Made by a program: the position numbers and the translations under genes. A stretch of 64,000 nucleotides of DNA from Sinomonas sp. R1AF57 (GTDB lineage: Bacteria > Actinomycetota > Actinomycetes > Actinomycetales > Micrococcaceae). Positions 7,969 to 41,872 of the stretch are shown in pieces. The stretch covers positions 876,782 through 940,781 of the forward strand of contig NZ_CP022463.1 in the NCBI RefSeq assembly GCF_002224485.1, read 5' to 3'. The number at the start of each line of letters is the position of its first letter. Within the stretch, counting starts at the first letter, position 1. The notes beneath the pieces are model-generated. The model was not told the DNA's origin. It was given only the letters and a program-made list of their open reading frames with translations, and did no database searches.

Positions 7969-8046
7969 AGGTGCGCCATGCGTTCCAGTCTTGCGGAGTC
8001 GGCGGCCTGCCGGGCGCAGCCGGCCAGGCGCAACTACGCTGAGGGC

Positions 8047-8574
8047 ATGAGCCCAGTCATCGAATTCGGCGGCGCTGCCCCCGACATCCATCCCAGTGCG
8101 TTCGTCGCACCGACGGCGAGCATCATCGGCGACGCGCACCTCGCAGAGCACTCGAGCGCGTTCTACGGCGTCTCCGTCCGCGGCGACAGCGCCACCATTT
8201 CTGTCGGCGCGGGGAGCAACCTCCAGGACAACGTCGTCCTCCATGCGGACGCCGGCTTTCCCTGCACGGTCGGCGCCGGCGTTTCGGTGGGGCACAACGC
8301 CGTCGTGCACGGGTGCACCGTGGAGGACAACGTCCTGGTCGGGATGGGCGCGACCATCATGAACGGCGCCGTCATCGGATCTGGCTCGCTCGTGGCTGCA
8401 GGCGCCGTCGTGCTCGAGGGCACCGTGGTGCCGCCGCGCTCGCTCGTGGCCGGCGTGCCTGCGAAGGTCCGTCGCGAGCTGTCCGACGAGGAGGTCGAGT
8501 CGGTGCGCCGCAACGCCACGCACTACGTCGACCTGGCCCGCGCCCACCGGCAGGCCAACGGCCACCACTCCTGA
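8047..8574 (+). CDS. Gamma-carbonic anhydrase family protein
   Basis: A 175-residue left-handed beta-helix protein built from hexapeptide repeats (for example IIGDAHL, VSVGHNAVVHG, GAVIGSG). The sequence resembles the YrdA/CaiE group. The His ligands of the trimeric gamma-class metal site are present (HADAGF, GHNAVVHG). Such proteins bind a metal and may hydrate CO2, but many have no proven activity. The start is the ATG at 8047: a -10 hexamer TACGCT (8035-8040) ends six bases before it, so the mRNA may be leaderless. It is divergent from the ROK gene. Confidence 0.88.
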   Translation: MSPVIEFGGAAPDIHPSAFVAPTASIIGDAHLAEHSSAFYGVSVRGDSATISVGAGSNLQDNVVLHADAGFPCTVGAGVSVGHNAVVHGCTVEDNVLVGMGATIMNGAVIGSGSLVAAGAVVLEGTVVPPRSLVAGVPAKVRRELSDEEVESVRRNATHYVDLARAHRQANGHHS

Positions 8575-8580
8575 CCGGCC

Positions 8581-8714
8581 CGCCGAGGTCACCCCCTCTG
8601 GCGCCGAGGTCACCCCGTGTGCCGCCGTAAAGGGTGATTTCGGGCCCACAGGGGGTGACGTCGCGCGCACAGGGGGTGACTTCGCGCCCACAGGCGGTGA
8701 CCTCGGCGAAGAGG
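8581..8714. repeat. 21-bp tandem repeat array, inverted arrangement
   Basis: Two leftward units (8581-8601, 8602-8622) are followed by four rightward units (8631-8651, 8652-8672, 8673-8693, 8694-8714), all sharing the core GGGGTGACTTCGCGC. The two halves are inverted, so the RNA would fold into a long hairpin. The array fills the space between two convergent genes (gamma-carbonic anhydrase and purU). It could act as a terminator, but it has no T-run and its unit recurs elsewhere in this window. Confidence 0.85.
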
Positions 8715-8727
8715 GCGGGGGCAGGGG

Positions 8728-9576
8728 TCAGGCGAAGACGACCGTCCGGTGCCCGTCGAGGAGCACGCGGTGCTCTGCGTGCCACTGCACGGCCCTGGAC
8801 AGGGTGCGGCCCTCGACGTCCCGGCCCAGCTGGACCAGCTGTTCGGCGGTCTTCGAGTGGTCCACCCGGATGACCTCCTGCTCGATGATCGGCCCCTCGT
8901 CGAGGTCGGCGGTCACATAGTGCGCCGTGGCGCCGATGATCTTCACGCCCCGCGCGTGCGCCTGGTGGTAGGGCCGGGCGCCCTTGAACGAGGGCAGGAA
9001 CGAGTGGTGGATGTTGATCGCCCGGCCCTCGAGGGCGCGGCACAGGTCATCGGAGAGGATCTGCATGTACCGGGCCAGCACGACAAGCTCGACCCGGTGC
9101 TCCTCGACGAGGGCGAGCAGCTTCGCCTCGGCGTCCGCCTTGGTCGCGGAGGTCACGGGCAGGTGCGCGAAGGGGACCCCGTAGAACTCGGCCATCGGCG
9201 CCAGGTCGGTGTGGTTCGAGACGACGGCGGGAACCTCGATCGGCAGTGTCCCGGTCCGCTGCTGGAACAGCAGGTCGTTGAGGGTGCGCCCGTCCTTGGA
9301 GCACATGATGAGCGTGCGGACGGGCTCGCCGCCGTTGAAGATCCCGAGCTTCATCGCGAAGGCGTCCGCCACCGGCGCGAGCGAGGCCTCGAGCGCGGCC
9401 CGCTCCGAGCCAGTCTCGACCGTGACCCTCATGAAGAACGTCCCTGTGTCCGGACTCTCGTACTGGCGGGACTCGGTGATGTTGCACCCCGCGTCGAGCA
9501 GCGCGCCCGAGACGGCGTGGACGATGCCGGGCCGGTCCGGGCACGAGAGGGTCACGATGAAGGTGTTGCGTTCCAC
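8728..9576 (-). CDS. purU: Formyltetrahydrofolate deformylase
   Basis: A 282-residue enzyme that hydrolyses 10-formyl-THF to THF and formate, balancing one-carbon pools and supplying formate. An N-terminal ACT domain (FIVTLSCPDRPGIVHAVSG) occupies residues 5-80. The formyltransferase-like catalytic domain carries the Asn-His-Asp triad in INIHHSFLPSF, HYVTADLDEGPI. Length matches the family. The start is GTG at 9576. On the minus strand TACCCT (9589-9584) ends seven bases before it, suggesting a leaderless transcript. It lies next to the one-carbon genes glyA and folD, with one unrelated gene in between. Confidence 0.95.
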   Translation of the reverse strand: MERNTFIVTLSCPDRPGIVHAVSGALLDAGCNITESRQYESPDTGTFFMRVTVETGSERAALEASLAPVADAFAMKLGIFNGGEPVRTLIMCSKDGRTLNDLLFQQRTGTLPIEVPAVVSNHTDLAPMAEFYGVPFAHLPVTSATKADAEAKLLALVEEHRVELVVLARYMQILSDDLCRALEGRAINIHHSFLPSFKGARPYHQAHARGVKIIGATAHYVTADLDEGPIIEQEVIRVDHSKTAEQLVQLGRDVEGRTLSRAVQWHAEHRVLLDGHRTVVFA

Positions 9577-9581
9577 GCGTC

Positions 9582-10709
9582 CTAGGGTACCGACGCGAGC
9601 GCGTCCTCCCGCGGCGCCCGGGCGGACGACGCCGCCGCCCCGCCGCCGTCTGAGAGGAACCGCACGGCGGCCAGGGCCGCGGAGCGCCCCGCCCGGGTGG
9701 CCCCCACGGTCGAGGCGCTCGCCCCGTACCCCACGAGGAACAGCCGGGGCTCGCGCACGACCCGCACGCCGTCGTCCGCCATGAGGACGCCGCCGCCCGG
9801 CTCGCGCACGTGGAGGGTCGCGAGGTGTCCGAGGGATGCCCGGAACCCCGTCGCCCAGAGGATGGCGTCGAGCTCGAGCTCGGTCCCGTCGGCGAGGACG
9901 GCACCCGAGCGGGTGATCCGTGCGAGCGGCCCCCGCGAGACCAGCACGCCCGCGTCGATCCCGGCGCGGTACTGCTCCGTGAGGGGGAGCCCGGTCGCGG
10001 CCACGACTGACAGCGGCGGCAGGCCGGCGCGCGTGCGCTCGCCCACTCGGCGTTCGACGGCGACGCCCCAGTCGGCGTCGAAGGGCACCTCGGTCCACTG
10101 CGGCGGCCGTCGGGTCGACCAGAAGGTCCGGGCGCCGGCGGCGTCGAGCTGGAGCAGGAACTGCGCCGCGCTCGTCCCGCCGCCCACCACGAGGACCCGC
10201 TGCCCGCGGAACTCCTCTGCCGAGACGAAGTCGTGCGTGTGCAGCTGCCTGCCCTGGAAGGCTTCGCGCCCCGGGTAGTGGGGCCAGTAGGGGCTGTCCC
10301 AGGTCCCGGTGGCGTTGATGACCGTCTCCGTCCGCCATTCGCGTCCGTCGGCGGCGCGCACGAGGAGCGCGCCGCCGTCGTGCGCCCGCTCCACCCAGGC
10401 GACCCGCACGGGCCGGATCACCGGCAGCGCGAAGGCGCGCTCGTAGTCCCCGTAGTAGCGGCTCACGACGGCGGAGGCCGGCTCGTGCGGGTCGGGCGCC
10501 TCGAGCGGGAGGCCGGGGAGCGGGTGGAGGCCGTGCGCGGCGTCGAACGTGAGGGAGTCCCACCGGTGGCGCCATGCTCCGCCGGGCCCCTCGTTGGCGT
10601 CGAGGACGACGAAGTCCTCCCAAGCCCGGAGCCCGCGGCGGCCGAGCCAGTACGCGGCGCTCAGGCCCACCTGGCCGGCCCCGATGACGACTGCCTTCAT
10701 CCTGTCCAC
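9582..10709 (-). CDS. Flavin-containing monooxygenase-like NAD(P)-binding oxidoreductase
   Basis: A 375-residue two-dinucleotide-binding flavoprotein. The FAD site is GAGQVGLSAAYW at ~10-21 and the NADPH site is VVGGGTSAAQF near residue 170. ATGFRASL marks the third conserved region. It resembles the CzcO/YpaA group of putative monooxygenases; the substrate is unknown. The GTG at 10709 is favoured because GGGAGG lies five bases upstream; the ATG at 10700 is an alternative. It ends five bases before the purU start on the same strand, so purU could also be read from this transcript. Confidence 0.85.
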   Translation of the reverse strand: MDRMKAVVIGAGQVGLSAAYWLGRRGLRAWEDFVVLDANEGPGGAWRHRWDSLTFDAAHGLHPLPGLPLEAPDPHEPASAVVSRYYGDYERAFALPVIRPVRVAWVERAHDGGALLVRAADGREWRTETVINATGTWDSPYWPHYPGREAFQGRQLHTHDFVSAEEFRGQRVLVVGGGTSAAQFLLQLDAAGARTFWSTRRPPQWTEVPFDADWGVAVERRVGERTRAGLPPLSVVAATGLPLTEQYRAGIDAGVLVSRGPLARITRSGAVLADGTELELDAILWATGFRASLGHLATLHVREPGGGVLMADDGVRVVREPRLFLVGYGASASTVGATRAGRSAALAAVRFLSDGGGAAASSARAPREDALASVP

Positions 10710-10796
10710 CCGGACCTCCCTGAGACGCTCACTGACATGTCAACTATCTGTTCCAACCGCCGAACGCCTCTTCCTGTTCCGGCCGTGCGGATATGC

Positions 10797-10882
10797 TGGA
10801 CTGGTCGCGACTGGCGTTGGGTGGGTCACCACCGGGGAGCGGCATGCTGTTGGGACACCGCGGATCGTACGCCTGGGCCGGG
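10797..10882 (+). promoter_or_regulatory. ZTP/ZMP riboswitch (pfl motif) upstream of glyA-folD
   Basis: The leader shows the diagnostic pfl-motif blocks in order: GCGACTGGCG near 10807, GGGTGGGTCACCACC followed by CGGGGAGCG near 10820-10842, a variable hairpin, and the distal element CGCCTGGGC at 10870-10878, which forms the pseudoknot. This RNA binds the purine intermediate ZMP/ZTP, which builds up when 10-formyl-THF is short, and typically turns on glyA, folD and purH. A -10-like TATGCT lies just upstream (~10793-10798). About 100 bases remain before the glyA start for an expression platform. The match is from memory of the consensus, not a covariance search. Confidence 0.87.
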
Positions 10883-10985
10883 GGTCGAGAAGCCGCGCCT
10901 TCATGCTCCGCCATCCAGTACCGGGCGGCGGGCAGGGCCGGTAGCCTGACCAGTAGCCTCCCGCAACCTTCGACCAGGAGATCCC

Positions 10986-12284
10986 GTGAGCCCCACCACT
11001 CCTACCGTGTCCACCGTCAGCAATCTCCCGCTGAGCGAAGTCGACCCCGAGATCGCGGCCGTCCTCGACCAGGAGCTCGGCCGCCAGCGCAATACCCTCG
11101 AGATGATCGCGTCGGAGAACTTCGCGCCGCGCGCCGTCATGGAGGCCCAGGGCTCGGTCCTGACCAACAAGTACGCCGAGGGCTACCCGGGCAAGCGCTA
11201 CTACGGCGGCTGCGAGTACGTCGACGTGGCCGAGAGCCTCGCGATCGAGCGCGTCAAGGCGCTCTTCGGCGCGGAGTACGCGAACGTCCAGCCGCACTCG
11301 GGTGCCCAGGCCAACGCCGCGGCACTGTCCGCCATGATCAACCCGGGCGACAAGATCCTGGGACTCTCCCTCGCCCATGGCGGCCACCTCACGCACGGCA
11401 TGAAGCTGAACTTCTCGGGCAAGCTCTACCAGGTCGCCGCGTACCAGGTCGAAGAGGACACGTTCCGGGTCGACATGGACAAGCTGCGCGAGCAGGCCCT
11501 CGCCGAGCGCCCGAACGTCATCATCGCCGGCTGGTCCGCCTACCCGCGCCACCTCGACTTCGCGGCGTTCCGCTCGATTGCCGACGAGGTCGGCGCGCTC
11601 CTGTGGACCGACATGGCGCACTTCGCCGGCCTCGTGGCCGCGGGCCTGCACCCGAGCCCCGTTCCGCACTCCCACGTGGTGACCTCGACCGTCCACAAGA
11701 CCCTCGCAGGCCCGCGCTCCGGCGTGATCCTCGCGAAGGAGGAGTTCGGCAAGAAGCTCAACTCCAACGTGTTCCCGGGGCAGCAGGGCGGCCCGCTCAT
11801 GCACGTCATCGCGGCCAAGGCGGTCGCCTTCAAGATCGCCGGCTCCGATGAGTTCAAGGAGCGCCAGGAGCGCGTCCTCGAGGGCGCGAAGATCATCGCG
11901 GACCGCCTCAACCAGAAGGACGTGGCCGACGCAGGAGTCTCCGTCCTCACCGGCGGCACTGATGTGCACCTGGTCCTGGTCGACCTGCGCAACTCGGAGC
12001 TCGACGGCCAGCAGGCCGAGGACCTCCTCCACGAGGTCGGCATCACCGTGAACCGCAACGCCGTCCCGTTCGACCCGCGCCCGCCGATGGTCACCTCGGG
12101 CCTGCGCATCGGCACGCCGGCTCTCGCCACCCGTGGGTTCGGCGCGACCGAGTTCACCGAGGTCGCGGACATCATCGCGACCGCGCTCAAGGGCGGCGCC
12201 GGGTCCGGCCTGGAGGCCCTCCGCGCGCGCGTCGACAAGCTCGCGAATGACTTCCCGCTCTACCCGGGGCACGAGGAGTGGTGA
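10986..12284 (+). CDS. glyA: Serine hydroxymethyltransferase
   Basis: A 432-residue PLP enzyme that converts serine and THF to glycine and 5,10-methylene-THF. The PLP-lysine motif [14 protein letters not shown] is intact, and the N-terminal [11 protein letters not shown] and [18 protein letters not shown] blocks are canonical. The GTG start at 10986 has AGGAG seven bases upstream. It is the first gene of a glyA-folD operon under a ZTP riboswitch, so expression should rise when formyl-THF runs low. The stop codon overlaps the folD start. Confidence 0.98.
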
Positions 12285-13198
12285 GCGAGACGATGGCGCC
12301 GCAGACAGAGAACAGGGCCGTCGTCCTCGACGGCCGCGCAGCCGCCGCGGAGATCAAGGCAGAGCTCTCCGATCGCGTCGCTGCGCTCAAGGCCAAGGGC
12401 ATCACCCCTGGCATCGCCACGGTGCTCGTTGGTGCCGATCCCGCCTCCCAGCTGTACGTGGGCATGAAGCACAAGCAGTCCAAGGCGATCGGGATGAACT
12501 CGATCCAGAAGGAGCTGCCGGCGGACGCCACGCAGGCCGAGGTCGAAGCCCTCATCGACGAGCTCAACGCCGATCCCGGGTGCCACGGGTACATCGTGCA
12601 GCTCCCGCTGCCCAAGCATCTGGACACGGACGCGATCCTCGAGCGGATCGATCCAGCGAAGGACGCGGACGGACTCCACCCGACGAACCTCGGGCGCCTT
12701 GTGCTCAACGTCAACGGGAAGATCGACACGCCGCTGCCCTGCACGCCGCGCGGCGTCATCGAGCTCCTGGTCCGCAACGGCTACGACCTCAAGGGCAAGC
12801 ACGTGGTCGTTGTCGGGCGCGGAGTCACGATCGGCCGCCCGATCCCGCTGCTGCTCACGCGCCGGGAGATCAACGCCACGGTCACGATCACCCATACGGG
12901 CACTGAGGATCTGGGCAGGCACCTGCGCGAGGCGGACGTCATCGTCGCCGGCGCGGGCGTGAAGCACATCGTCAAGGCCGAGGACGTGAAGCCCGGTGCA
13001 GCCGTGCTGGATGTCGGCGTGACCCGCGAGGACGACCCCGAGGGCGGCAAGCCGAAGGTGTTCGGCGACGTGCACCCTGACGTCGCCCAGGTCGCGGGAT
13101 ACCTCTCGCCCAACCCGGGCGGTGTGGGGCCGATGACCGTGGCCCTGCTCATGACCAACGTCGTCGAAGCCGCCGAGCGCACCGCAGGCCTCGCCTGA
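12281..13198 (+). CDS. folD: Bifunctional methylene-THF dehydrogenase/cyclohydrolase
   Basis: About 305 residues. The enzyme oxidises 5,10-methylene-THF (NADP-linked) and hydrolyses methenyl-THF to 10-formyl-THF, using the product of GlyA. Conserved features are [13 protein letters not shown] with the catalytic Lys, [20 protein letters not shown], the nucleotide-binding [12 protein letters not shown] and [14 protein letters not shown]. The GTG at 12281 overlaps the glyA stop as GTGA. GTG at 12278 and ATG at 12293 are also possible; GAGGAG at 12273-12278 is close to the first two. Translational coupling to glyA is likely. Confidence 0.96.
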
Positions 13199-13209
13199 CT
13201 CCACCCGTC

Positions 13210-13303
13210 TGGGGGTCACCCTCTGGGGGTCACTTCCTGGGAGTCACATCGCGTGACCCCCAGAAGGTGACCCCCAGAGTGCTGTCGGACCCCCAGAGCG
13301 CTG
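13210..13303. repeat. CTGGGGGTCAC repeats forming nested hairpins
   Basis: Arms 13221-13233 (CTCTGGGGGTCAC) and 13267-13279 are perfect 13-bp inverted repeats. Inside them 13237-13247 pairs with 13253-13263 with one mismatch. Further direct copies of CCCCCAGAG follow, to about 13298. The element begins a dozen bases after the folD stop and probably ends its transcript. It is the same family as 15645-15770. Confidence 0.8.
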
Positions 13304-13396
13304 TCGGGCGCCTACTCCGCGGGGAGTACGCGCCCGCCGCCCCCGTTCCGCCGGGCGGACGACGACGCCGCCCCCACGCGCGCGTAGGCTCGGCCT

Positions 13397-14545
13397 ATGC
13401 GTGGGTGGACTGAGGCGGGGCCGCGGGCCGCGTGGGCAGGCCGCCGCCCGCCGTGGCCGTTCCGCGTGGCGGGCGTCGCCGTGCTCGCCCTCGTGCAGGT
13501 GCTCGGCACGCACGGCGCGGCGGTGCGCCAGCCGGATGCCCGCGCCGTCGACCTCCTCGCGGTCCTGCTCCTCGTCGCCGGGCCGGCGCTCCTGCTCGTC
13601 CTCCCGCGCTGGCCGGGGCCGGCCGCCGCCGCAGCGGTGGCGGTGACCATCGCCTACTTCGCCCTCGGCTACCCGTGGGGCCCGGTCCTCGCGGCGCCCG
13701 CCATCGCCCTTGTCCTGGCGACGGCCGCCGGTGCCCGCCTCTGGGCGTGGTCCGCCGGCGTGGTCTTCGTGGCGGCGGCAGCGGCTTGGGCCGCGCCCAC
13801 TGGGGAGTGGCTCAGGGTCGCGGCGGTGGGCGCGTGGGCTGCCGTCGTGCTCCTGCTCGGTGAGGGGCTGCGGGTCCGGCGGGAGCGGTTCGCCGCCCGG
13901 CGCCGCGAGTGGGAGGCCCATCGGCGCCAGGCGCGCGACCAGGAGCGCCTCGAGCTCGCGCGGGACATCCACGACGTGGTCGCGCACTCGCTCTCCCTCA
14001 TCAACGTCCGCGCGAGCGTCGCGCTGCATCTGGCCGACCGGCGGCCCGAGGAGCTCCTCCCGGCCCTCGAGGCGATCAAGAACGCGAGCCACGAGGCGCT
14101 CGGCGAGGTCCGCGAACTCCTCGGGGTCCTCCGGCAGGACGCCCCCGTCGGCCGGGACGAGCCCCTGGACCGGGTGCCCGCGCTCGTCGAGGATGCCCGG
14201 GGGACGGGCCTCGAGGTGACCCTGACGGCCCAGCTGGACCCGCCGCCGTCGCCCGCGATCCAGCGGATCGTGCACTGGGTGGTGCAGGAGGCGCTCACCA
14301 ACACCGTGCGGCACGCCGGTGCGCGCACCGCCGGGGTGAGGATCGCGCGCGAGGGCGGCGCCGTCGTCGTGGAGGTGCACGACGACGGCTCGGGCCTGCG
14401 CGGCGCCGCGCCCGGGTCGGGGCTGACCGGGATGCGCGAGCGGGTCGAGGCGGCGGGCGGCTCCCTCACCCTGGCGGACGACGCCGGGCTGCTCCTCCGC
14501 GCGGAGCTCCCCGAGGCGGGGGTCGGGGGAGGGGGGCGCCGGTGA
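13397..14545 (+). CDS. Two-component sensor histidine kinase (HisKA_3 type)
   Basis: A 382-residue membrane sensor of the NarL/DesK-like class. Four to five hydrophobic segments fill residues ~20-155, with almost no extracellular loop. A coiled linker leads to the phospho-acceptor helix LARDIHDVVAHSLS (His192), then the ATPase domain with QEALTNTVRHA (N box) and DDGSGLRG...GLTGMRERV (G boxes). The stimulus is unknown. The start is the ATG at 13397: TAGGCT (13385-13390) ends six bases before it, suggesting a leaderless mRNA. It overlaps its response regulator by four bases. Confidence 0.93.
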   Translation: MRGWTEAGPRAAWAGRRPPWPFRVAGVAVLALVQVLGTHGAAVRQPDARAVDLLAVLLLVAGPALLLVLPRWPGPAAAAAVAVTIAYFALGYPWGPVLAAPAIALVLATAAGARLWAWSAGVVFVAAAAAWAAPTGEWLRVAAVGAWAAVVLLLGEGLRVRRERFAARRREWEAHRRQARDQERLELARDIHDVVAHSLSLINVRASVALHLADRRPEELLPALEAIKNASHEALGEVRELLGVLRQDAPVGRDEPLDRVPALVEDARGTGLEVTLTAQLDPPPSPAIQRIVHWVVQEALTNTVRHAGARTAGVRIAREGGAVVVEVHDDGSGLRGAAPGSGLTGMRERVEAAGGSLTLADDAGLLLRAELPEAGVGGGGRR

Positions 14546-15207
14546 TCCGGATCCTCGTCGTAGACGACCAGGCCCTCATCCGCGCCGGATTCCGTGCGCT
14601 GCTGGACGCTGAGCCGGACATGGAGGTGGTCGGGGAGGCGGGGAGTGGATCGGCAGCCGTGGCCGAGGCGGAGCGGCTCTCGCCCGACGTCGTCCTCATG
14701 GACATCCGCATGGCCGGCGGCGATGGCCTCGAGGCCACCCGGATCATCCTCGGCGCCCATCGCGAGGGCCTCAAGGTCATCATCCTGACCACGTTCGAGC
14801 TGGACGAGTATGTCACCGGCGCGATCCGCGCCGGGGCGAGCGGCTTCCTGGTCAAGGACACCGAGCCTGAGGATCTTGTCCGCGCAGTGCGGGCCGTGCA
14901 CGACGGCGACGCGATGCTCTCGCCGTCGGTGACCCGTAGGCTCCTCACCCGGCTCGCAGCGGAGGGGCCGGCCGAGCGGGCCCAGCCGCTCGACGTCGGC
15001 CTGCTCACCGAGCGCGAACGGGAAGTGGTGGCACTGGTCGGTCAGGGGCTCAACAATGCCGAGATCGCCGAGCGGCTCTTCATCACGCCCCTGACCGCGA
15101 AGACGCATGTCTCCCGGGCGATGACGAAGCTGGGTCTCCGGGACCGGGCGCAGCTCGTGGTCCTCGCCTACGAGTCGGGGCTGGTACGGCCGGGGTGGCT
15201 GGGGTGA
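14542..15207 (+). CDS. Two-component response regulator, LuxR/NarL family
   Basis: A 221-residue regulator paired with the preceding kinase. The receiver domain has acidic residues in VVDDQ, the phospho-acceptor Asp54 in VLMDIRM, and the Thr/Lys pair in ILTTF and FLVKD. The C-terminal LuxR-type HTH is LTEREREVVALVGQGLNNAEIAERLFI...KTHVSRAMTKLG. The GTG start at 14542 overlaps the kinase stop (GTGA). The target may include the small SHOCT gene just downstream; this is guessed from position only. Confidence 0.95.
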   Translation: MIRILVVDDQALIRAGFRALLDAEPDMEVVGEAGSGSAAVAEAERLSPDVVLMDIRMAGGDGLEATRIILGAHREGLKVIILTTFELDEYVTGAIRAGASGFLVKDTEPEDLVRAVRAVHDGDAMLSPSVTRRLLTRLAAEGPAERAQPLDVGLLTEREREVVALVGQGLNNAEIAERLFITPLTAKTHVSRAMTKLGLRDRAQLVVLAYESGLVRPGWLG

Positions 15208-15360
15208 GGGCTGGGACGTGTGTGCTCCCGGCGGTGCTCCCGCGGGAGTAGGCGTCCGGCTGAAGTGTCTCCCGGCGGCCGACGCGCCCTGCGGCCGCGG
15301 CGCGAAGACTGGAGTCAGCGGCTGAAGGACAGCCGATGTCTAGTCAAGGAGACGTGCGCC

Positions 15361-15636
15361 ATGAACGCAGCACTCATCGCCACCCAGAACGCCGCGGACC
15401 ACTGGGGAGGGCCCTGGTTCCCCTGGTTCCTGCTCTTCCCGCTGTTCTGGTTCCTCGTCCTGATCCTCTTCTTCGTGTTCGCGCGTCGCTTCTGGTGGCG
15501 GCGGCACTGGCAGGAGGCCTCAGGGGCCGGGGCCGAGTCGGTGCTCCGCGAGCGGTACGCGCGCGGCGAGATCGACGAGACGGAGTACCGGCAGCGGCTC
15601 GAGGTCCTGAGGGCAGACCGCGGAAAGTCCCGCTGA
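15361..15636 (+). CDS. Small SHOCT-domain membrane protein
   Basis: A 91-residue protein with a Trp/Phe-rich membrane segment (GGPWFPWFLLFPLFWFLVL) at residues ~16-45. A short basic WRRHW stretch and a C-terminal SHOCT motif (VLRERYARGEIDETEYRQRL) follow. SHOCT tails are thought to help oligomerise membrane or secreted proteins; no activity is known. AAGGAG lies ten bases before the ATG. It follows the two-component genes by 153 bp, in the same direction. The palindrome CTCCCGCGGGAG lies in that gap. Confidence 0.85.
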   Translation: MNAALIATQNAADHWGGPWFPWFLLFPLFWFLVLILFFVFARRFWWRRHWQEASGAGAESVLRERYARGEIDETEYRQRLEVLRADRGKSR

Positions 15637-15644
15637 CCCCAGCC

Positions 15645-15770
15645 CTCTGGGGGTCACATTCTGGGGGTCACATTCTGGGGGTCACATTCTGAAGGTCAGA
15701 CTCTGAAGGTCAGGTTCTGGAGGTCACGTGAAGTGACTTCCAGAACCTGACCTTCAGGACGTGACCCTCA
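15645..15770. repeat. 14-bp tandem repeats ending in a 25-bp hairpin
   Basis: Six tandem 14-bp units start at about 15647, 15661, 15675, 15689, 15703 and 15717, drifting from CTGGGGGTCACATT to CTGAAGGTCAGACT. The last two units (15703-15727) form a hairpin with 15733-15757: 25 bp with one G-T pair and a five-base loop. It lies between the convergent SHOCT and MFS genes, about eight bases after the first stop, so a two-way terminator role is plausible. Confidence 0.85.
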
Positions 15771-15788
15771 GACGAGGGGGTACGGGTG

Positions 15789-17180
15789 TCAGGCCTTCGC
15801 GGCCTCGGGGGCGGCGGCCGCGGTGTGGGGGCCGAAGACCGTGGCGCCCGTGGCCTGCTCCGCCTCGTGGTCCGGGCCGAGCGGAATGCCCCGCCGGTCA
15901 CGGAGCATCAGGACCGCGGCGATGGAGATGACGGTCATCACGAGGAGGTAGGCCGAGACGGCTGCGGTGGTGCCGGTCTCCTGGAGGAGGGCCTGGGCGA
16001 TGGTGGGTGCGAAGGCGCCCCCGAGGATGGCGCCGATCGCGTACGAGATCGAGACGCCGGAGAACCGGACCGAGGCGGGGAAGATCTCGGAGTACCCGGC
16101 CGCCTGCGGGCCGTAGGTGAGCCCGAGTCCGATGGAGAACAGGACCAGGCCAGCGTAGAGGCCGCCGAGGTTGCCGATGTTGACGAACCAGAACAGCGGG
16201 AAGACCATGAGCGCCTGGAACACGAACCCGATGAGGTAGGTGGCCTTGCGGCCGATCCTGTCGGCGAGGATCCCGGCGACGAGCGTCGAGATGAACCACA
16301 TGGCGGACGCGACGGTCGCGGCGAGCAGCACGGCGGTGGAGTCCATCTTGAGCCGGCCGGTGGCGTAGCCCTGGATGAAGCCGCCGGTGGTCATGTAGCC
16401 CGCGGCGTTGTTGCCGACGAAGACGAGCGAGGCGAGGACCACGAGATGCCAGTGCTTGCGGAACAGGGCCACGATCGGCACCTTGGTCTGCTGGCCGCGC
16501 TCGGCGATCTCAGCGAAGACGGGGCTCTCCTCGACCGCACGCCGCACGAAGTAGCCGACAACGATCAGCACGACGCTGAGCAGGAACGGCACGCGCCAGC
16601 CCCACTCGAGGAACGCCCTGCCGGGGGAGACGAGCCCCGTCATGATCGCCATGACGCCGGAGGCGAGGAGCATGCCGAGCGGGACGCCGAGCTGCGGGAA
16701 CGCGCCGGCGAGGCCGCGGCGGTGGTTGGGGGCGTGTTCGACGGCCATGAGGACTGCCCCGCCCCACTCGCCGCCGGCGGAGACGCCCTGGAGGATGCGC
16801 AGGAGCAGCAGCAGGATGGGCGCGGCCATGCCGACCTGGGAGAACGTCGGCAGCACGCCGATGAGGGTCGTCGCAGCGCCCATGAGGATCAGGGTGATGA
16901 CGAGCATCGCGCGCCGGCCGATCACGTCGCCGAAGTGGCCGGCGAGGAAGGCCCCGAGCGGGCGGAAGAGGAAGCTGATGCCCACGGTGGCGAACGAGAG
17001 CAGGAGGGCGATGTCGTTGCCCGCCGGCTTGAAGAAGAGCTCGGCGAACACGAGGGCCGCGCCCGTGGCGTAGATGAAGAAGTCGTACCACTCGATGGTG
17101 GTCCCGATGATCGTGGCGAACGCTACGCGTCGCTGGTTCGCTGCGGAGGATGGGGCTGAGGCTGCGCCGGGTGTGGTCAT
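15789..17180 (-). CDS. MFS transporter, metabolite:H+ symporter (MHS) family
   Basis: A 463-residue 12-helix permease. IEWYDFFIYATGAALVF in helix 1, LFRPLGAFLAGHFGDVIGRR in the loop 2-3 region and LRILQGVSAGGEWGGAVLMAVEH are typical of the MHS group (ShiA, ProP, CitA, KgtP relatives). These import carboxylates, shikimate or betaines by proton symport; the substrate here is unknown. The ATG at 17180 has AAGGAC about nine bases upstream. The reading frame continues upstream to 17324, but without membrane or conserved sequence. It is divergent from a LysR regulator that likely controls it. Confidence 0.92.
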   Translation of the reverse strand: MTTPGAASAPSSAANQRRVAFATIIGTTIEWYDFFIYATGAALVFAELFFKPAGNDIALLLSFATVGISFLFRPLGAFLAGHFGDVIGRRAMLVITLILMGAATTLIGVLPTFSQVGMAAPILLLLLRILQGVSAGGEWGGAVLMAVEHAPNHRRGLAGAFPQLGVPLGMLLASGVMAIMTGLVSPGRAFLEWGWRVPFLLSVVLIVVGYFVRRAVEESPVFAEIAERGQQTKVPIVALFRKHWHLVVLASLVFVGNNAAGYMTTGGFIQGYATGRLKMDSTAVLLAATVASAMWFISTLVAGILADRIGRKATYLIGFVFQALMVFPLFWFVNIGNLGGLYAGLVLFSIGLGLTYGPQAAGYSEIFPASVRFSGVSISYAIGAILGGAFAPTIAQALLQETGTTAAVSAYLLVMTVISIAAVLMLRDRRGIPLGPDHEAEQATGATVFGPHTAAAAPEAAKA

Positions 17181-17310
17181 TGCGTGTCTGTCCTTGGGGT
17201 GCCGGCATCGTCGGTGATGCCACTCGGATGCGGTCTCGCCGCAGGGTGCGAAGGGTGGTGTCAGCGGAGCCCTCATGGGGCGGACTGAGGAAAGGACGGT
17301 AAGACCCATC

Positions 17311-17324
17311 GTGGCGTATGCCAC
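17311..17324. promoter_or_regulatory. Palindrome in the MFS-LysR divergent promoter region
   Basis: GTGGC-GTAT-GCCAC is a 5-bp inverted repeat with a 4-base centre, midway between the divergent starts (17180 and 17431). The region around it (17330-17385) is the most AT-rich in this part of the window. A LysR site would be expected here, but no clean promoter hexamers were found. Confidence 0.35.
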
Positions 17325-17430
17325 TTCCTCGTGTAAACTTCAGAGCATTGGCAAAGTAATTCGGTCTAACTTAACTTGGCTGCTCGACTCAACGTGGTGC
17401 GGCGTCGCTACTTCCCCTCTCGAGGTCCTC

Positions 17431-18405
17431 ATGGCAGACGTGACGCTCAGGCAGCTCGAGCTCTTCGCGGCACTGCCGGACTACGAGACGCTCAGCGCCG
17501 CCGCGGTCGACCTGCACATCTCGGAGTCCGCGCTGTCGCAGGCCATCACCGGGTTGGAGAGGACGGTGGGCGAGCAGCTGTGCGTGCGCCGCAAGGCACG
17601 CGGCTTCGCGCTGACTCCCGCCGGACAGCACTTCGCCACCCAGGCGCGCCGGATCCTCGCGGACACCCGTGAGCTCGTCCTGGACACCCAGAGCGGGGGG
17701 AAGCTGCGCGGCCCCGTCAAGCTGGGCTGCTTCGCGAGCTTCGCGACGAGCATCGTGCCCGCCGTCGTGGACGGCTTCCCCCGCCGGCATCCCGGGATCG
17801 ACCTCGAGATCACCGTCGGGACCCACGAAGACCTCCTGCCGGACCTCGAGGCAGGCAAGCTCGACGTCGCGATCGTCTACGACCTCTTCCTCCCGGCCGG
17901 CTACCGGCACCGGGAGATCTATGCGACGGAGCTCGAGGCGCACCTGCACCCCGACCACCCGCTCGCGGCGAGGGACGCCGTCGACCTCGCCGACCTCGCC
18001 GACGAGCCGCTCGTCATGTACGAGGCGCGCCCCAGCATCGAGAACACGCTGCAGGCGTTCGCGGCGCGCGGGCTCACGCCGCGGGTGGCGGCGCGGGTGC
18101 CGCAGATCATCCTCGTACAGGCGCTCGTGGGCCGCGGAGTGGGCTATGGGCTGCTCATGTCCCGCCCGAACACGACCGCGACCTCCGTTGAAGGCCGTCC
18201 GATCGCGGTGCGCCCCATCGAGCCTTCGGCGACGCGCACGAACGTCGTGGCCATCTGGCCCGAGGACATGGACCTCACGCCGCGCGCCGCGGCCCTCCTG
18301 GACTACGCGGTCGAGATCCTGGGCTGCTACGGTCGCCAGGCAGGGCACGACGGCGCCGGGTCGCCCGCCGCGGCGGCCGGCAGCCCGCGTGACACGCGGG
18401 GGTGA
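17431..18405 (+). CDS. LysR-family transcriptional regulator
   Basis: A 324-residue regulator. The N-terminal winged HTH (TLRQLELFAALPDYETLSAAA...SESALSQAITGLERTVG) is at residues ~5-65, followed by a LysR substrate-binding domain (PVKLGCFASFATSIVPAVV, GKLDVAIVYD). The ATG at 17431 has GAGG six bases upstream and opens directly into the HTH. The longer frame to 17275 runs through the promoter region. It probably regulates the divergent MHS transporter in response to that transporter's substrate. The Ala/Pro-rich C-terminus after ~300 is likely disordered. Confidence 0.92.
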   Translation: MADVTLRQLELFAALPDYETLSAAAVDLHISESALSQAITGLERTVGEQLCVRRKARGFALTPAGQHFATQARRILADTRELVLDTQSGGKLRGPVKLGCFASFATSIVPAVVDGFPRRHPGIDLEITVGTHEDLLPDLEAGKLDVAIVYDLFLPAGYRHREIYATELEAHLHPDHPLAARDAVDLADLADEPLVMYEARPSIENTLQAFAARGLTPRVAARVPQIILVQALVGRGVGYGLLMSRPNTTATSVEGRPIAVRPIEPSATRTNVVAIWPEDMDLTPRAAALLDYAVEILGCYGRQAGHDGAGSPAAAAGSPRDTRG

Positions 18406-18488
18406 AACGTTCGTTGTGAGACCTGCCGCGCGGCACTAGAGTGCGAGAGATGTCACGCTGTGGTGCCATGCAACTCGGGGGGAGTGCA

Positions 18489-19427
18489 GTGGGAGAGGCG
18501 ACGAGCAATGCCGTCATCTCGGCACGCCACCTGACGAAGTCCTTCGGCGAGGTCACAGCGGTCGACGGCATCTCCTTCGACGTCGCTGCCGGCGAATCCT
18601 TCGGGCTGCTCGGACCCAACGGCGCTGGCAAGTCCACGACGATGCGCATGATCGGCGGAGTGAGCCAGCGGACCTCGGGGCAGCTCACCATCATGGGCAT
18701 GGACCCCGAGCTGCAGGGCCCCGAGGTGCGCGCCCATCTCGGCGTCGTGCCCCAGCAGGACAACCTCGACGAGGAACTCCGCGTCCGCGACAACCTCATC
18801 ATCTACGGCCGCTACTTCGGACTCCCCACCGCGTACCTCAAGCGCCGGGCCGACGAACTCCTCGCCTTCGCCCAGCTCGAGGACAAGGCCGCGGCTCGCG
18901 TCGACTCGCTGTCCGGGGGCATGAAGCGGCGCCTGACGATCGCCCGTTCGCTCGTGAACGAGCCGACGATCCTCCTCCTCGACGAGCCCACCACAGGCCT
19001 CGACCCCCAGGCCCGGCATATCCTGTGGGACCGGCTGTTCCGCCTCAAGGAGCAGGGGGTCACCCTCGTCCTCACGACCCACTACATGGACGAGGCCGAG
19101 CAGCTGTGCGACCGCCTCATCGTCGTGGACAAGGGCCGGATCATGGCGGAGGGGTCGCCGCCCGCGCTCATCCGCGAGCATTCGAGCCGCGAGGTCCTCG
19201 AGCTGCGGTTCGGCGCGGAGCGCAACGCCGCGGTCCTCGGTGAACTCGAGGGGGTGGGGGAACGCACCGAGCTGCTCCCGGACCGCGTCCTGGTCTACAC
19301 GCACGACGGCGAGTGGTCCCTCGAGCAGGCCCGGGCGCGGGGGCTGCGGCCGCTCACCTCGCTCGTGCGCCGCGCATCGCTCGAGGACGTGTTCCTCCGG
19401 CTGACGGGCCGGTCGCTCGTTGACTGA
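18489..19427 (+). CDS. ABC transporter ATP-binding protein (DrrA/NodI type)
   Basis: A 312-residue single ABC ATPase for the two following permeases. It has Walker A GPNGAGKST, signature LSGGMKRRLTIARSL, Walker B ILLLDEPTTGLDPQ and the H-loop TTHYMDEAEQL, all typical of drug- or nodulation-factor-type exporters. The GTG at 18489 has GGGGGAG just upstream. An ATG at 18450 is a real alternative: TAGAGT (18437-18442) ends seven bases before it, the leaderless spacing seen at other genes here. The exported substrate is unknown. Confidence 0.92.
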   Translation: MGEATSNAVISARHLTKSFGEVTAVDGISFDVAAGESFGLLGPNGAGKSTTMRMIGGVSQRTSGQLTIMGMDPELQGPEVRAHLGVVPQQDNLDEELRVRDNLIIYGRYFGLPTAYLKRRADELLAFAQLEDKAAARVDSLSGGMKRRLTIARSLVNEPTILLLDEPTTGLDPQARHILWDRLFRLKEQGVTLVLTTHYMDEAEQLCDRLIVVDKGRIMAEGSPPALIREHSSREVLELRFGAERNAAVLGELEGVGERTELLPDRVLVYTHDGEWSLEQARARGLRPLTSLVRRASLEDVFLRLTGRSLVD

Positions 19428-20319
19428 CCAGCGCGCACGGGCCGGAGGGCGTCCAGCCGCGCGGGACGCCCGCGCCCGGCACCGCTCCAGCCCCGTGCAC
19501 GCGCACGGCCCCGGCGTCTCGGCCGCCAAAGCCAGGCGCTGGGGCGCCCTGTACTTCGCCGAGCACATGCTCCGCAGGATGCGCGCCTACCTCGTCACCA
19601 TCGTCGTGACCAGCGTGGGCAACCCGCTCCTGTACCTCTTCTCGATGGGCGTGGGGCTGGCCACGATCGTGGACCGGTCCGGCACCGGCTCCGCGGCGTT
19701 CGACGGCGTCGGGTACCTCGCGTACGCCGCCCCCGCACTGCTGGTGTCCAGCGCCGTCCTGACGTGCGCCAACGAGATGATGTACCCGGTGATGGACGGC
19801 TTCAAGTGGCGCCGCGTCTACTACGGGCCGCACGTGACTCCGCTGGCCCCGGGCCAGCTCGCGACGGGCCACATCCTCGCGGTGGGCGTCCGCCTGCTGG
19901 TCCAGTGCATCGTGTTCTTCCTCATCATGCTCGCGTTCGGCGCGGCACCCGGCCCGTGGGCGTTCCTGCTCGTGCCGCTCGGCGTCCTCACCGGGATGGC
20001 GTTCGGCGCCCCGGTCATGGCCTACTCCGCCTACATCGAGAAGGAGAACTTCCAGTTCTCCATGATCCAGCGCTTCGTCATCATGCCGCTGTTCCTGTTC
20101 TCCGGCACGTTCTATCCGCTCGAGACCATGCCTGCGGGAATGCAGTGGATCGGCTGGATCTCGCCCTTGTGGCATGGGAACCAGCTCGCGCGCATCGTCT
20201 CGTATGGCCTCAGCCTCCCCGTCTGGCTCGTTGGCGTGCACCTCGGCTATCTGGCCGCGCTCGGGGTCCTGGGGATCTGGTGGGCGCGCCGGAACTACAC
20301 GAGGAGGATGAGCACGTGA
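19420..20319 (+). CDS. ABC-2 type transporter permease (first of two)
   Basis: A 299-residue membrane protein of the NodJ/DrrB (ABC2_membrane) family. Six hydrophobic segments follow a charged N-terminus of ~40 residues. The conserved end LFLFSGTFYPLETMPAGMQWIGWISPLWHG is characteristic. The TTG start at 19420 overlaps the ATPase stop by eight bases and lacks a good ribosome site; GTG at 19495 is possible, which would drop the basic tail. It works with the next gene as a heterodimeric membrane channel. Confidence 0.87.
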   Translation: MTDQRARAGGRPAARDARARHRSSPVHAHGPGVSAAKARRWGALYFAEHMLRRMRAYLVTIVVTSVGNPLLYLFSMGVGLATIVDRSGTGSAAFDGVGYLAYAAPALLVSSAVLTCANEMMYPVMDGFKWRRVYYGPHVTPLAPGQLATGHILAVGVRLLVQCIVFFLIMLAFGAAPGPWAFLLVPLGVLTGMAFGAPVMAYSAYIEKENFQFSMIQRFVIMPLFLFSGTFYPLETMPAGMQWIGWISPLWHGNQLARIVSYGLSLPVWLVGVHLGYLAALGVLGIWWARRNYTRRMST

Positions 20320-21146
20320 TCCTCATGGCCAACCGCTCCGGCGCCACTGCTACAGGGCGGGGTCCGCTCGCGGGACTGTACGCGGGGAACGCGCGCGCCG
20401 TCGTCGAACGCGGATTCCGCGTCATCAAGAGCCAGAACTGGATCATCCTCGTCTCCGGGTTCTTCGAGCCGGTGTTCTACCTGCTGTCCATGGGGGTCGG
20501 CCTGGGCTCCCTGGTCGGCACAGTCGAGGGGCCGGGAGGGACGCCCATCTCGTACGCCGCGTACATCGCGCCGGCCCTGCTCGCAGTCTCGGCAATGAAC
20601 GGCGCCATCTACGACTCGACATGGAATGTGTTCTTCAAGATGCACTTCGGCAAGCTCTACCAGGGCATGCTCTACACGTCGCTGGGGCCGCTCGACATCG
20701 CCATGGGGGAGATCCTCATGGCGCTCTTCCGCGGCTTCCTGTATGCGCTGGGCTTCACCGGCGTCATGGCGGTCATGGGGCTGATCACGACCCCGTCGGC
20801 CCTCCTGCTCGTGCCGGCGTCGGTCATGGTGGCGTTCGGGTTCGCCTCGTTCGGGATGGCGGTGACCAGCTACATGAAGACCTTCCAGCACATGGATCTG
20901 ATCACCTTCGTCATGCTGCCGATGTTCCTCTTCTCGGCAACCTTCTATCCGCTCTCCGTGTACCCGAAGCCGATCCAGTGGATCGTCGAGGCGTTCCCCC
21001 TCTGGCACGGCGTGGAGCTGATGCGGCAGATCAGCATCGGCGTCTTCACGGGCTCGACCTGGGTCCACCTGCTCTACTACGCAGGCATGATCCTCTGCGG
21101 ACTCGCCTTCACGACTCTCCGGCTCCGGGCGCTCTTCCTCCGCTGA
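20316..21146 (+). CDS. ABC-2 type transporter permease (second of two)
   Basis: A 276-residue paralogue of the previous permease, sharing LPMFLFSATFYPLSVYPKPIQWI and FPLWHGVELMRQ near its C-terminus, with six membrane segments. GTG at 20316 overlaps the upstream stop (GTGA) and has GAGGAGG nine bases before it; the ATG at 20325 is less well placed. Two unequal permeases plus one ATPase suggest an exporter with a heterodimeric channel. Its stop codon is the first base triplet of the 21-bp repeat array that follows. Confidence 0.9.
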   Translation: MILMANRSGATATGRGPLAGLYAGNARAVVERGFRVIKSQNWIILVSGFFEPVFYLLSMGVGLGSLVGTVEGPGGTPISYAAYIAPALLAVSAMNGAIYDSTWNVFFKMHFGKLYQGMLYTSLGPLDIAMGEILMALFRGFLYALGFTGVMAVMGLITTPSALLLVPASVMVAFGFASFGMAVTSYMKTFQHMDLITFVMLPMFLFSATFYPLSVYPKPIQWIVEAFPLWHGVELMRQISIGVFTGSTWVHLLYYAGMILCGLAFTTLRLRALFLR

Positions 21147-21275
21147 CGTCACCCGGTGTGGCGCCGAGGTCACCCGGTGTGGCGCCGAGGTCACCCCGTG
21201 TCGCTGTCAGCGGGGGTGACTTCGCGCTCACAGGGGGTGACTTCGGGCGCACACGGGGTGACCTCGGCGTACGGG
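21144..21275. repeat. 21-bp tandem repeat array, inverted arrangement
   Basis: Three leftward units (from 21144, 21164 and 21185) and three rightward units (21213-21233, 21234-21254, 21255-21275) carry the core GGGGTGACTTCGSGC and flank a short centre (21206-21212). The array starts at the stop codon of the second permease and ends just before the next gene. One reading frame stays open through the rightward units into that gene (GVTSR, GVTSG, GVTSA peptides). Confidence 0.85.
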
Positions 21276-21302
21276 ACGGGGGCGCCTATCGTGTCTGGAA
21301 GA

Positions 21303-21845
21303 ATGGGGGGCATGCAGAGTCTCGGCCCCCAGAACCCGTCCATCCAGTCCGGCGCCGGCGCCCAAGCCCGCCGTGGAGGAGGCTTCAGGATCGGTGCGCT
21401 GGGCCTGTCGGTCCTCGTCCTGGCCTTCCTCGTCGCCGTGATCTTCGCCGCCAACCAGAACGATGTCATCGGCTGGATCGTGGTCATCGTGTCCTTCGGC
21501 TGGCTCGCCTTCGCGACGTTCGTGTTCCTGACGGTCCGGAGCGCGGGGCGCCGCGCCCAGGAGCGCTTCGAGCGCGCGGCCGAGAAGCTCACGGGCCGGG
21601 CGCCGTCGCTCGCCGGGACTGCAGGGGAGGCGCGCTCGGTCGACGACGTCCGCGACCTCAAGCTCGACCATTCGTTCAAGATCATCCAGGTCCAGGAGCG
21701 TGTGATCCGGGAGAACCTCGGGGGCGACCCCGAGATGGTGGCGCGTGCCCTCGAGACCATCCAGATCACGGCGTCGAACGCCCGTGACATGCTCCGTCCC
21801 GACGATGACACGCCCGTCTCCGGGACCGTCGTCGACGAGGGGTAG
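21303..21845 (+). CDS. Hypothetical membrane protein with two transmembrane segments
   Basis: 180 residues, family not recognised. After ~30 polar residues there are two hydrophobic helices (IGALGLSVLVLAFLVAVIF and VIGWIVVIVSFGWLAFATFVF). A charged cytoplasmic tail follows, with a helical region (SFKIIQVQERVIRENLGGDPEMVARALETIQITA) that ends in an acidic tail. Starts at 21303 and 21312 are both possible; GGAAG lies about ten bases before 21312. It could be co-transcribed with exonuclease III nine bases downstream, although that gene has its own -10. Confidence 0.75.
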   Translation: MGGMQSLGPQNPSIQSGAGAQARRGGGFRIGALGLSVLVLAFLVAVIFAANQNDVIGWIVVIVSFGWLAFATFVFLTVRSAGRRAQERFERAAEKLTGRAPSLAGTAGEARSVDDVRDLKLDHSFKIIQVQERVIRENLGGDPEMVARALETIQITASNARDMLRPDDDTPVSGTVVDEG

Positions 21846-21854
21846 AGTGGCTAG

Positions 21855-23749
<1,895 letters not shown>

Positions 23750-41149: not shown

Positions 41150-41872
41150 GTGAGCGCCGCCGTCGACCGTCTCGTCGAGGTGATCCGCCTCCTCCGCGAG
41201 CACTGCCTCTGGACGGCGGCGCTCACGCATGCCTCCCTGGTGACGTACCTCGTGGAGGAGTCGTACGAGCTCGTGGAGGCTATCGAGGATGAGCATCCCG
41301 AGGAAGACCTCAAGGGAGAGCTCGCCGACGTCCTGCTCCAGGTCGTGCTGCACGCCGAGATCGCGCGGGAGCGCGGCGCCTTCGACCTCGACGCGGTGGC
41401 GGAGGCGCTCACGGAGAAGATGGTGCGCCGCAACCGGCACGTCTTCACGCCTGACGGCGGCCTGCAGCCGAGCTTCCCGGCCACGGTCGAGGAGATCATC
41501 TCCTCGTGGGACGAGGCGAAGCGCGCGGAGAAGGCGGCACTCGCCGAGGGAACCGCGGACGACGGCGACGCCTCGCCGCACCTTGTCGGCCCCACCGCGC
41601 TCGAGGGGCTTCCGCGGCACCTTCCGGCGCTCGCCCTCGCGGACAAGGCGCTCGGGCGGGCGGAGCGGCGTCGTGCGCTCGACGGGGTGACTTCGGCGTC
41701 AGAGGGGGTGACCTCGGCCCCACACGGGGTGACTTCGGCGTCAGAGGGGGTGACTTCGGCGTTCGGGACGGAGGAGGAACTCGGGGACTTCCTGCTCGGC
41801 GTCGTCCGGGCGGCCCGGGCGCGGGGGCTCGACTCCGAGCGGGCGCTGCGCACCGCCGTCGGGCGTCTCTGA
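41150..41872 (+). CDS. mazG: MazG-family nucleotide pyrophosphohydrolase with repeat insertion
   Basis: A 240-residue enzyme that hydrolyses (d)NTPs to monophosphates. The metal-binding EESYELVEAIEDE and ELADVLLQVVLHAE helices are at residues ~35-75. Two thirds along, four 7-residue repeats (GVTSASE, GVTSAPH, GVTSASE, GVTSAFG; ~179-206) interrupt the protein before a final helical segment (ELGDFLLGVVRAARARG). The DNA of these repeats is the same 21-bp unit found between genes elsewhere in the window. Canonical CPWD is replaced by CLWT at ~25. GTG at 41150 lacks a strong ribosome site. Confidence 0.88.
   Translation: MSAAVDRLVEVIRLLREHCLWTAALTHASLVTYLVEESYELVEAIEDEHPEEDLKGELADVLLQVVLHAEIARERGAFDLDAVAEALTEKMVRRNRHVFTPDGGLQPSFPATVEEIISSWDEAKRAEKAALAEGTADDGDASPHLVGPTALEGLPRHLPALALADKALGRAERRRALDGVTSASEGVTSAPHGVTSASEGVTSAFGTEEELGDFLLGVVRAARARGLDSERALRTAVGRL
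41684..41766 (+). repeat. 21-bp repeat array inside mazG
   Basis: Four direct units start at 41684, 41705, 41726 and 41747, with core GGGGTGACTTCGGCG. Units 1 and 3 are identical over 21 bases. All run in one direction, unlike the inverted arrays at 8.6 and 21.2 kb. A 21-bp period keeps the reading frame and adds seven residues per unit. Confidence 0.9.

What the first reader, a model, noticed from the sequence alone, without database searches (positions are those of the whole stretch)
8581..21275. Dispersed 21-bp repeat family in inverted arrays behind genes
A 21-bp unit with core GGGGTGACTTCGSGC occurs as two leftward and four rightward copies at 8581-8714, and three plus three at 21144-21275. 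Both arrays begin at or within ten bases of a stop codon and are organised as head-to-head halves that would fold into long stems. The same unit appears again inside mazG. The copies differ at few positions, which suggests recent spread or active conservation. They lack T-runs and unique spacers, so neither a simple terminator nor CRISPR explains them. They may be a lineage-specific mobile or structural element: a 3' RNA end structure, a protein-binding array, or a REP-like sequence.
Basis: seen in the sequence. Interest (0 to 1): 0.75.

Follow-up and report, generated by a model that had tools for sequence, protein, structure and literature searches.

The report
Outward tandem-repeat arrays at gene ends
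A soil bacterium (Sinomonas) carries dozens of short tandem-repeat arrays, pointing outward in pairs, at the ends of genes and inside proteins; related species carry differently spelled arrays at the same spots, and what makes or reads them is unknown.

Summary
The window lies in a Sinomonas genome with 292 copies of a 21-bp unit (GGGGTGACCTCGGCGCCACAC) in 72 half arrays at 48 loci found; 20 halves lie inside genes, and of the other 52, 26 have the outer end within 40 bp of a facing stop codon (inner end: 8). Paired halves point outward (21 pairs). The window also holds two outward 14-bp arrays. At the same orthologous sites, relatives carry arrays of other units, or none.

The stem reading is weakened. 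Elements can fold, but halves close enough to form a hairpin are less complementary than permuted ones (12 pairs, 0.370 vs 0.519, 0 of 3000), while distant halves show no effect. Single halves are not palindromic. Positions 3-8 and 10-12 are nearly fixed, others vary, which suggests a site recognised as DNA. No RAYT transposase domain was found in 15 Sinomonas genomes. The arrays resemble REP/BIME repeats in location but fail REP-defining tests. Binding protein, function and spreading mechanism are inferred or unknown.

The parts
8581..8616 (-). left half array, 2 class I (21-bp) units, 6 bp after the stop of the + gene 8047-8574
8631..8708 (+). right half array, 4 class I units (the innermost diverged, the outermost partial), before the stop of the - gene 8728-9576
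21141..21197 (-). left half array, 3 class I units; the outermost overlaps the stop codon of the + gene 20316-21146
21213..21269 (+). right half array, 3 class I units, upstream of the + gene 21303-21845
41684..41761 (+). in-frame array of 4 class I units (GVTSASE...) in the C-terminal part of the MazG-domain protein 41150-41872, outside the Pfam match
13206..13280 (.). class II outward element, 14-bp units TGACYYYCAG, after the stop of the + gene 12281-13198 (approximate ends)
15644..15774 (.). class II outward element, 14-bp units, between the convergent genes 15361-15636 and 15789-17180 (approximate ends)

Best explanation
These are dispersed, clade-specific iteron-like arrays. SHOWN: strict 21-bp (two helical turns) head-to-tail units; a nearly fixed core (GGTGAC-N-TCG; in the own genome also a CA); a distinct outermost unit (CTCGGCG); outward-facing paired halves; frequent placement at gene 3' ends and, inside genes, mostly outside known domains; copy-number differences between two close strains at two sites; other unit spellings at the same sites in related species; halves close to each other diverged so that they no longer form a perfect palindrome. 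INFERRED: each unit is a DNA recognition site for a sequence-specific protein, not identified, that fills the array cooperatively on one face of the helix and makes a nucleoprotein block at gene ends (insulating neighbouring transcription, or holding supercoils as gyrase-binding BIMEs may). Units multiply by slippage or unequal exchange and reach new places by recombination or an unknown enzyme. Perfect palindromes are purged because long cruciforms are unstable.
For: In 148 internal units, positions 3-8, 10-12 and 17-18 have entropy 0-0.25 bit, positions 1-2 about 0.7, and 9, 13-16 and 19-21 have 0.8-1.6. In 136 internal units from relatives, 4-7 and 10 are at most 0.11 and 3, 8 and 11 about 0.3. 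The core matches the consensus at 0.990 in 70 coding and 0.977 in 150 non-coding units, in both strand senses and more than one reading phase, so the constraint looks like one on DNA rather than on protein or one RNA strand. Outward pairs: 21 in the own genome, 15 in relatives, 9 distinct class II pairs; no inward pair forms an element. Nearby halves are less complementary than permuted ones, distant ones are not. Half arrays have no self-folding signal on average, mean z -0.03, n = 59. Orthologous sites carry other unit types or nothing. BIME-2 binding of gyrase: passage in PMC2817692.
Against: No binding protein was identified; no protein-DNA or transcript data exist here. Twenty of 72 halves lie inside open genes, so a strong transcription block is unlikely there. 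The 14-bp period of class II is not a whole number of helical turns. In relatives the CA is loose (position 17: 0.56 bit, 18: 1.06) and position 12 is 0.52. The core could look conserved partly because decayed units are missed: arrays were seeded at 14 bits and extended at 4 bits or more. The avoidance result rests on 12 pairs from one genome, with a 60-bp cut set after seeing the gaps (break between 48 and 114); relatives have no pair that close, and three pairs under 130 bp were inconclusive. Half of the intergenic halves lack a facing stop within 40 bp of the outer end.
Confidence: 0.42

Rival explanations
1. Purely selfish repeats: a non-autonomous element family moved by an unknown, non-RAYT enzyme or by ectopic recombination, with no host role; the fixed core is what that machinery needs.
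For: Patchy presence: 5 of 15 Sinomonas genomes match the strict two-unit class I pattern; class II triplets in 5 of 197 family genomes, 5 of the 11 Sinomonas among them. In-frame intragenic copies; copy-number differences between close strains; empty or other-type orthologous sites.
Against: No transposase was identified, and target-site duplications were not looked for systematically; no Y1 transposase domain in any of 15 genomes; no blastn match of one array in plasmids or phages.
Confidence: 0.33
2. A 3' RNA hairpin or bidirectional terminator: the inverted halves pair in the transcript and end or stabilise mRNAs.
For: Three whole elements tested fold far better than shuffles, z -5.2 to -8.0; 26 of 52 intergenic halves lie in convergent spaces, against 44 of 219 intergenic spaces in the fetched DNA.
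Against: Halves with gaps of 60 bp or less are less complementary than permuted halves (0 of 3000 as low), and fold with about 58% of the energy of a perfect stem. Of the 53 elements called, 32 have no partner within 1300 bp (two of these are single weak units). A hairpin does not require that orientation be outward. No U-tract terminator at the two intergenic class I arrays of the window.
Confidence: 0.14
3. An uptake-signal-like sequence that accumulates through biased natural transformation, as DUS dialects do in Neisseriaceae.
For: Species-specific spellings, gene-end and tolerated coding positions and no transposase resemble DUS; the dialect paper PMC3630211 was seen only as a search listing with the start of its abstract, the rest is recalled.
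Against: Tandem arrays of strict period and outward order are not expected from point-by-point accumulation; 48 loci is few for an uptake signal (recalled comparison).
Confidence: 0.06

Closest known systems
REP / BIME elements (GTAG-REPs with RAYT transposases)
   Same: Dispersed, in opposite-orientation pairs, mostly downstream of genes and between convergent or same-direction genes, sometimes inside genes, several types in one organism, uneven between species (PMC3733652, abstract and passages seen).
   Different: Half arrays here are not palindromic, show no GTAG tag in the consensus (by eye), are iterated at exactly 21 or 14 bp, and no Y1 transposase domain was found in 15 Sinomonas genomes.
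CGTC-REPs (REPs without a dedicated transposase)
   Same: No associated transposase, head-to-head dimers predominant; heterodimers preferred in most GTAG and CGTC families, and the authors suggest heterodimers may be protected from SbcCD-type cleavage (PMC3733652, passages), which parallels the avoidance found here.
   Different: CGTC-REPs have 8-9 bp stems and rarely cluster; these units lack a stem and are normally tandem.
Plasmid-type iterons (recalled)
   Same: Head-to-tail sites of about two helical turns with a fixed core.
   Different: Dispersed over 48 chromosomal loci, often in inverted pairs; no initiator protein identified.

Membership tests
REP | Each unit is an imperfect palindrome able to form a stem-loop | tested here: not met
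   59 half arrays of at least 3 units folded as DNA (up to 84 nt each): mean z -0.03, 7% below -2, lowest -4.0; five single-orientation stretches z +0.4 to +1.0
REP (RAYT-mobilised) | RAYT tyrosine transposase (Y1_Tnp, PF01797) in the genome | tested here: not met
   0 of 15 Sinomonas genomes; the search rang in 5 of 14 control genomes
REP | Terminal GTAG or CGTC tag | tested here: not met
   Read by eye from unit consensus and end units
REP | Opposite-orientation dimers, mostly downstream of genes | tested here: met
   21 outward pairs; outer end within 40 bp of a facing stop in 26 of 52 intergenic halves
CRISPR array | Repeats separated by unique spacers | tested here: not met
   Units abut at 21 bp with no spacer
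Intrinsic terminator | GC stem followed by a T-tract | tested here: not met
   Three terminator-like sites in window 8000-22000 (shuffles 2.4), none at the arrays
Known structured RNA (Rfam 15) | Match above gathering score | tested here: not met
   Only TPP, tRNA and ZMP-ZTP in six sources, none on arrays
Protein-bound iteron array | A cognate DNA-binding protein | not testable with these tools
   No binding data

The most novel reading that the evidence does not exclude
A genus-level class of self-renewing DNA-recognition arrays: a fixed architecture (outward iterons of 21, 14 or 32 bp) whose unit spelling is replaced between species at the same chromosomal sites, implying a fast-evolving recognition protein or copying enzyme of an undescribed type.
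Probability: 0.25. Interest if true: 0.78.

Novelty: new variant of a known kind. Interest (0 to 1): 0.55.

Why it matters
It shows a REP-like way of colonising gene ends and protein linkers without palindromic units and without the RAYT transposase thought to drive REPs. It also gives distance-dependent statistical support, in one genome, to a suggested reason why inverted repeats are built of unlike halves. The species-specific spellings at shared sites make the search for the trans-acting protein directly testable by comparing Sinomonas genomes.

Tried and rejected
Chance: rejected. CRISPR, Rfam RNA, U-tract terminator: rejected. RAYT: rejected. Plasmid or phage carriage: no blastn match of array 2. 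A shared inner motif CGCACGACGGCG was suspected as the element's centre: it is central in some elements but occurs far more widely, so it was not made a defining part. Inward pairs within 30 bp: none by exact pattern. Uneven distribution over the genome: KS p 0.07, not claimed. Dropped before the count of 72: two single-unit halves (262399 and 2931086); the first lies in what looks like a zinc alcohol dehydrogenase (motif recalled). The count of 72 includes two halves that my script split in two at register slips (346557/346600 and 3114037/3114078). A four-protein tree gave relations but no dated gains and losses. Literature searches listed no paper on these arrays; only PMC3733652 and PMC2817692 were opened, as passages.

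Full report
What is there. The finding's two arrays are real, and the mazG copy is a third, four-unit array. The window lies in a 3.94-Mb single-contig genome. The exact hits of a two-unit pattern in the genome collection were 14 loci in those two organisms; the window's own genome may be left out there. In register the repeat is far beyond chance: 237 two-unit matches against 1 for the reversed control. A profile scan of fetched stretches found 72 half arrays of at least two units, 292 units, 48 loci. Listings were capped at about 100 rows, so loci were gathered from several patterns and from stray hits; a few loci may be missing.

Anatomy. Units repeat at 21 bp, with rare one-base register slips. 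In 148 internal units, positions 3-8, 10-12 and 17-18 are nearly invariant (entropy 0-0.25 bit), 1-2 intermediate (0.7), and 9, 13-16 and 19-21 vary (0.8-1.6). The outermost unit keeps CTCGGCG and then loses similarity. In relatives (50 distinct half arrays, 236 units, 136 internal) positions 4-7 and 10 are at most 0.11 bit, 3, 8 and 11 about 0.3, but 12 is 0.52, 17 is 0.56 and 18 is 1.06, so the CA is not a general feature. Paired halves point outward: 21 pairs in the own genome with gaps of 4-1123 bp. Two inward neighbours within 1300 bp also exist: by position one joins two adjacent elements (641843, 642850) and the other involves a single weak unit (2930806, 2931086). Relatives give 15 outward, 0 inward and 4 same-direction neighbours. 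Class II gives 20 outward, 0 inward and 2 same-direction neighbours with duplicate loci counted, 9 distinct outward pairs.

Place. Twenty halves lie inside genes and 52 between genes. The outer end is within 40 bp of a facing stop codon in 26 of 52 (a start in 4), the inner end in 8 (a start in 1). By gene orientation the 52 are 26 convergent, 21 same-direction and 5 divergent, against 44, 129 and 46 of all 219 intergenic spaces in the fetched DNA, which includes the array sites. Genes were called by a simple codon-usage script of mine. Intragenic arrays keep the frame and are read in both strand senses. Eight array-bearing proteins were scanned with Pfam. By coordinates, 10 of their 11 arrays lie outside the matched domains, among them linkers of a 2-oxoacid dehydrogenase acyltransferase and of LigD; the MoeA array lies inside the matched N-terminal region. 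In PabB the arrays sit in two loops that range from no array to about eight units across 15 genomes.

Stem or site? Three whole elements fold better than shuffles (z -5.2 to -8.0). But in the 12 pairs with gaps of 60 bp or less the two halves agree at variable positions in only 0.370 of comparisons, against 0.519 +/- 0.047 for permuted partners (0 of 3000 as low); in the 9 pairs with longer gaps it is 0.534 against 0.540. The cut follows a natural break in the gaps (48 to 114) but was set after seeing them. A second in-register statistic on the same 12 pairs agrees: 0.442 against 0.566. The real elements fold with 58% of the energy of perfect stems; the longest uninterrupted in-register stem is 11 bp at the median and 20 at most. 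So the halves seem selected, or filtered, not to be a palindrome. Relatives have no pair with a gap of 60 bp or less, so this could not be replicated; three pairs up to 130 bp were inconclusive (0.299 against 0.452 +/- 0.120). Half arrays alone do not fold on average (mean z -0.03, n = 59). I read the constraint as DNA-site recognition; the 21-bp period fits one helix face, the 14-bp period of class II does not.

Dialects. At the site of array 1, relatives G003, G010 and G011 carry the same kind of unit, G008 a different 21-bp unit (CCCCATCTCGGCG...), G002 two decayed units, and G001, G004, G005 and G009 only 13-31 bp; G006 has 257 bp without such arrays by eye. G012 has 32-bp units at a contig start. 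G013 and G014 were not resolved and G007 was not fetched. At the site of array 2, G002, G003 and G004 carry 32-bp units (GTACCCGAGACGGGG...), G008 its own 21-bp unit, G010 and G011 the class I unit, G007 another longer repeat, and G001, G005, G006, G009, G012, G013 and G014 short spacers. The window itself has two outward arrays of a 14-bp unit, TGACYYYCAG. Class II triplets matched 5 of 197 family genomes: 5 of 11 Sinomonas drawn and 0 of 186 others, control 0. The class I tail pattern is less clean: it matched 114 of 197 genomes. Sinomonas genomes have 1-79 matches (five of the 11 have 18 or more), other genera 0-10, and those listed are mostly scattered single hits. Two strains 97-99% identical over matching stretches differ in copy number at both sites.

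What moves it. No Y1 transposase domain in any of 15 genomes; no plasmid or phage match of one array. The spreading mechanism is unknown.

Comparison. REPs share location, pairing and intragenic copies, and heterodimers are often preferred in REPs too (PMC3733652, passages). Palindromic units, tag and RAYT were tested and not met, so I do not file these as REPs; they work like REPs in where they live. 'Not in print' rests only.

Noticed in passing
own genome; e.g. L039 around record position 1998294, window 19303: A separate, very abundant 12-mer CGCACGACGGCG (65 exact in 354 kb of fetched own DNA), sometimes as inverted pairs forming a stem; its 11-mer core occurs in 17 of 20 stretches of 20 kb from relatives. 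Could be a REP-like or uptake-signal-like family.
   Followed up: partly
window 13206-13280 and 15644-15774: Outward arrays of a 14-bp unit TGACYYYCAG at gene ends; triplets of it in 5 of 197 family genomes, all Sinomonas.
   Followed up: partly
L155 (G002), L156 (G003), L157 (G004): 32-bp units GTACCCGAGACGGGG... arranged outward round a central stem, at the orthologous site of array 2.
   Followed up: partly
L199 (G006) 9345-9813: 21-bp arrays that mix two unit spellings (GGGGTGAT... and GGGACCCGA...) with a common TCGGCGTC tail.
   Followed up: no
window 10797-10885: ZMP/ZTP riboswitch above gathering score.
   Followed up: no
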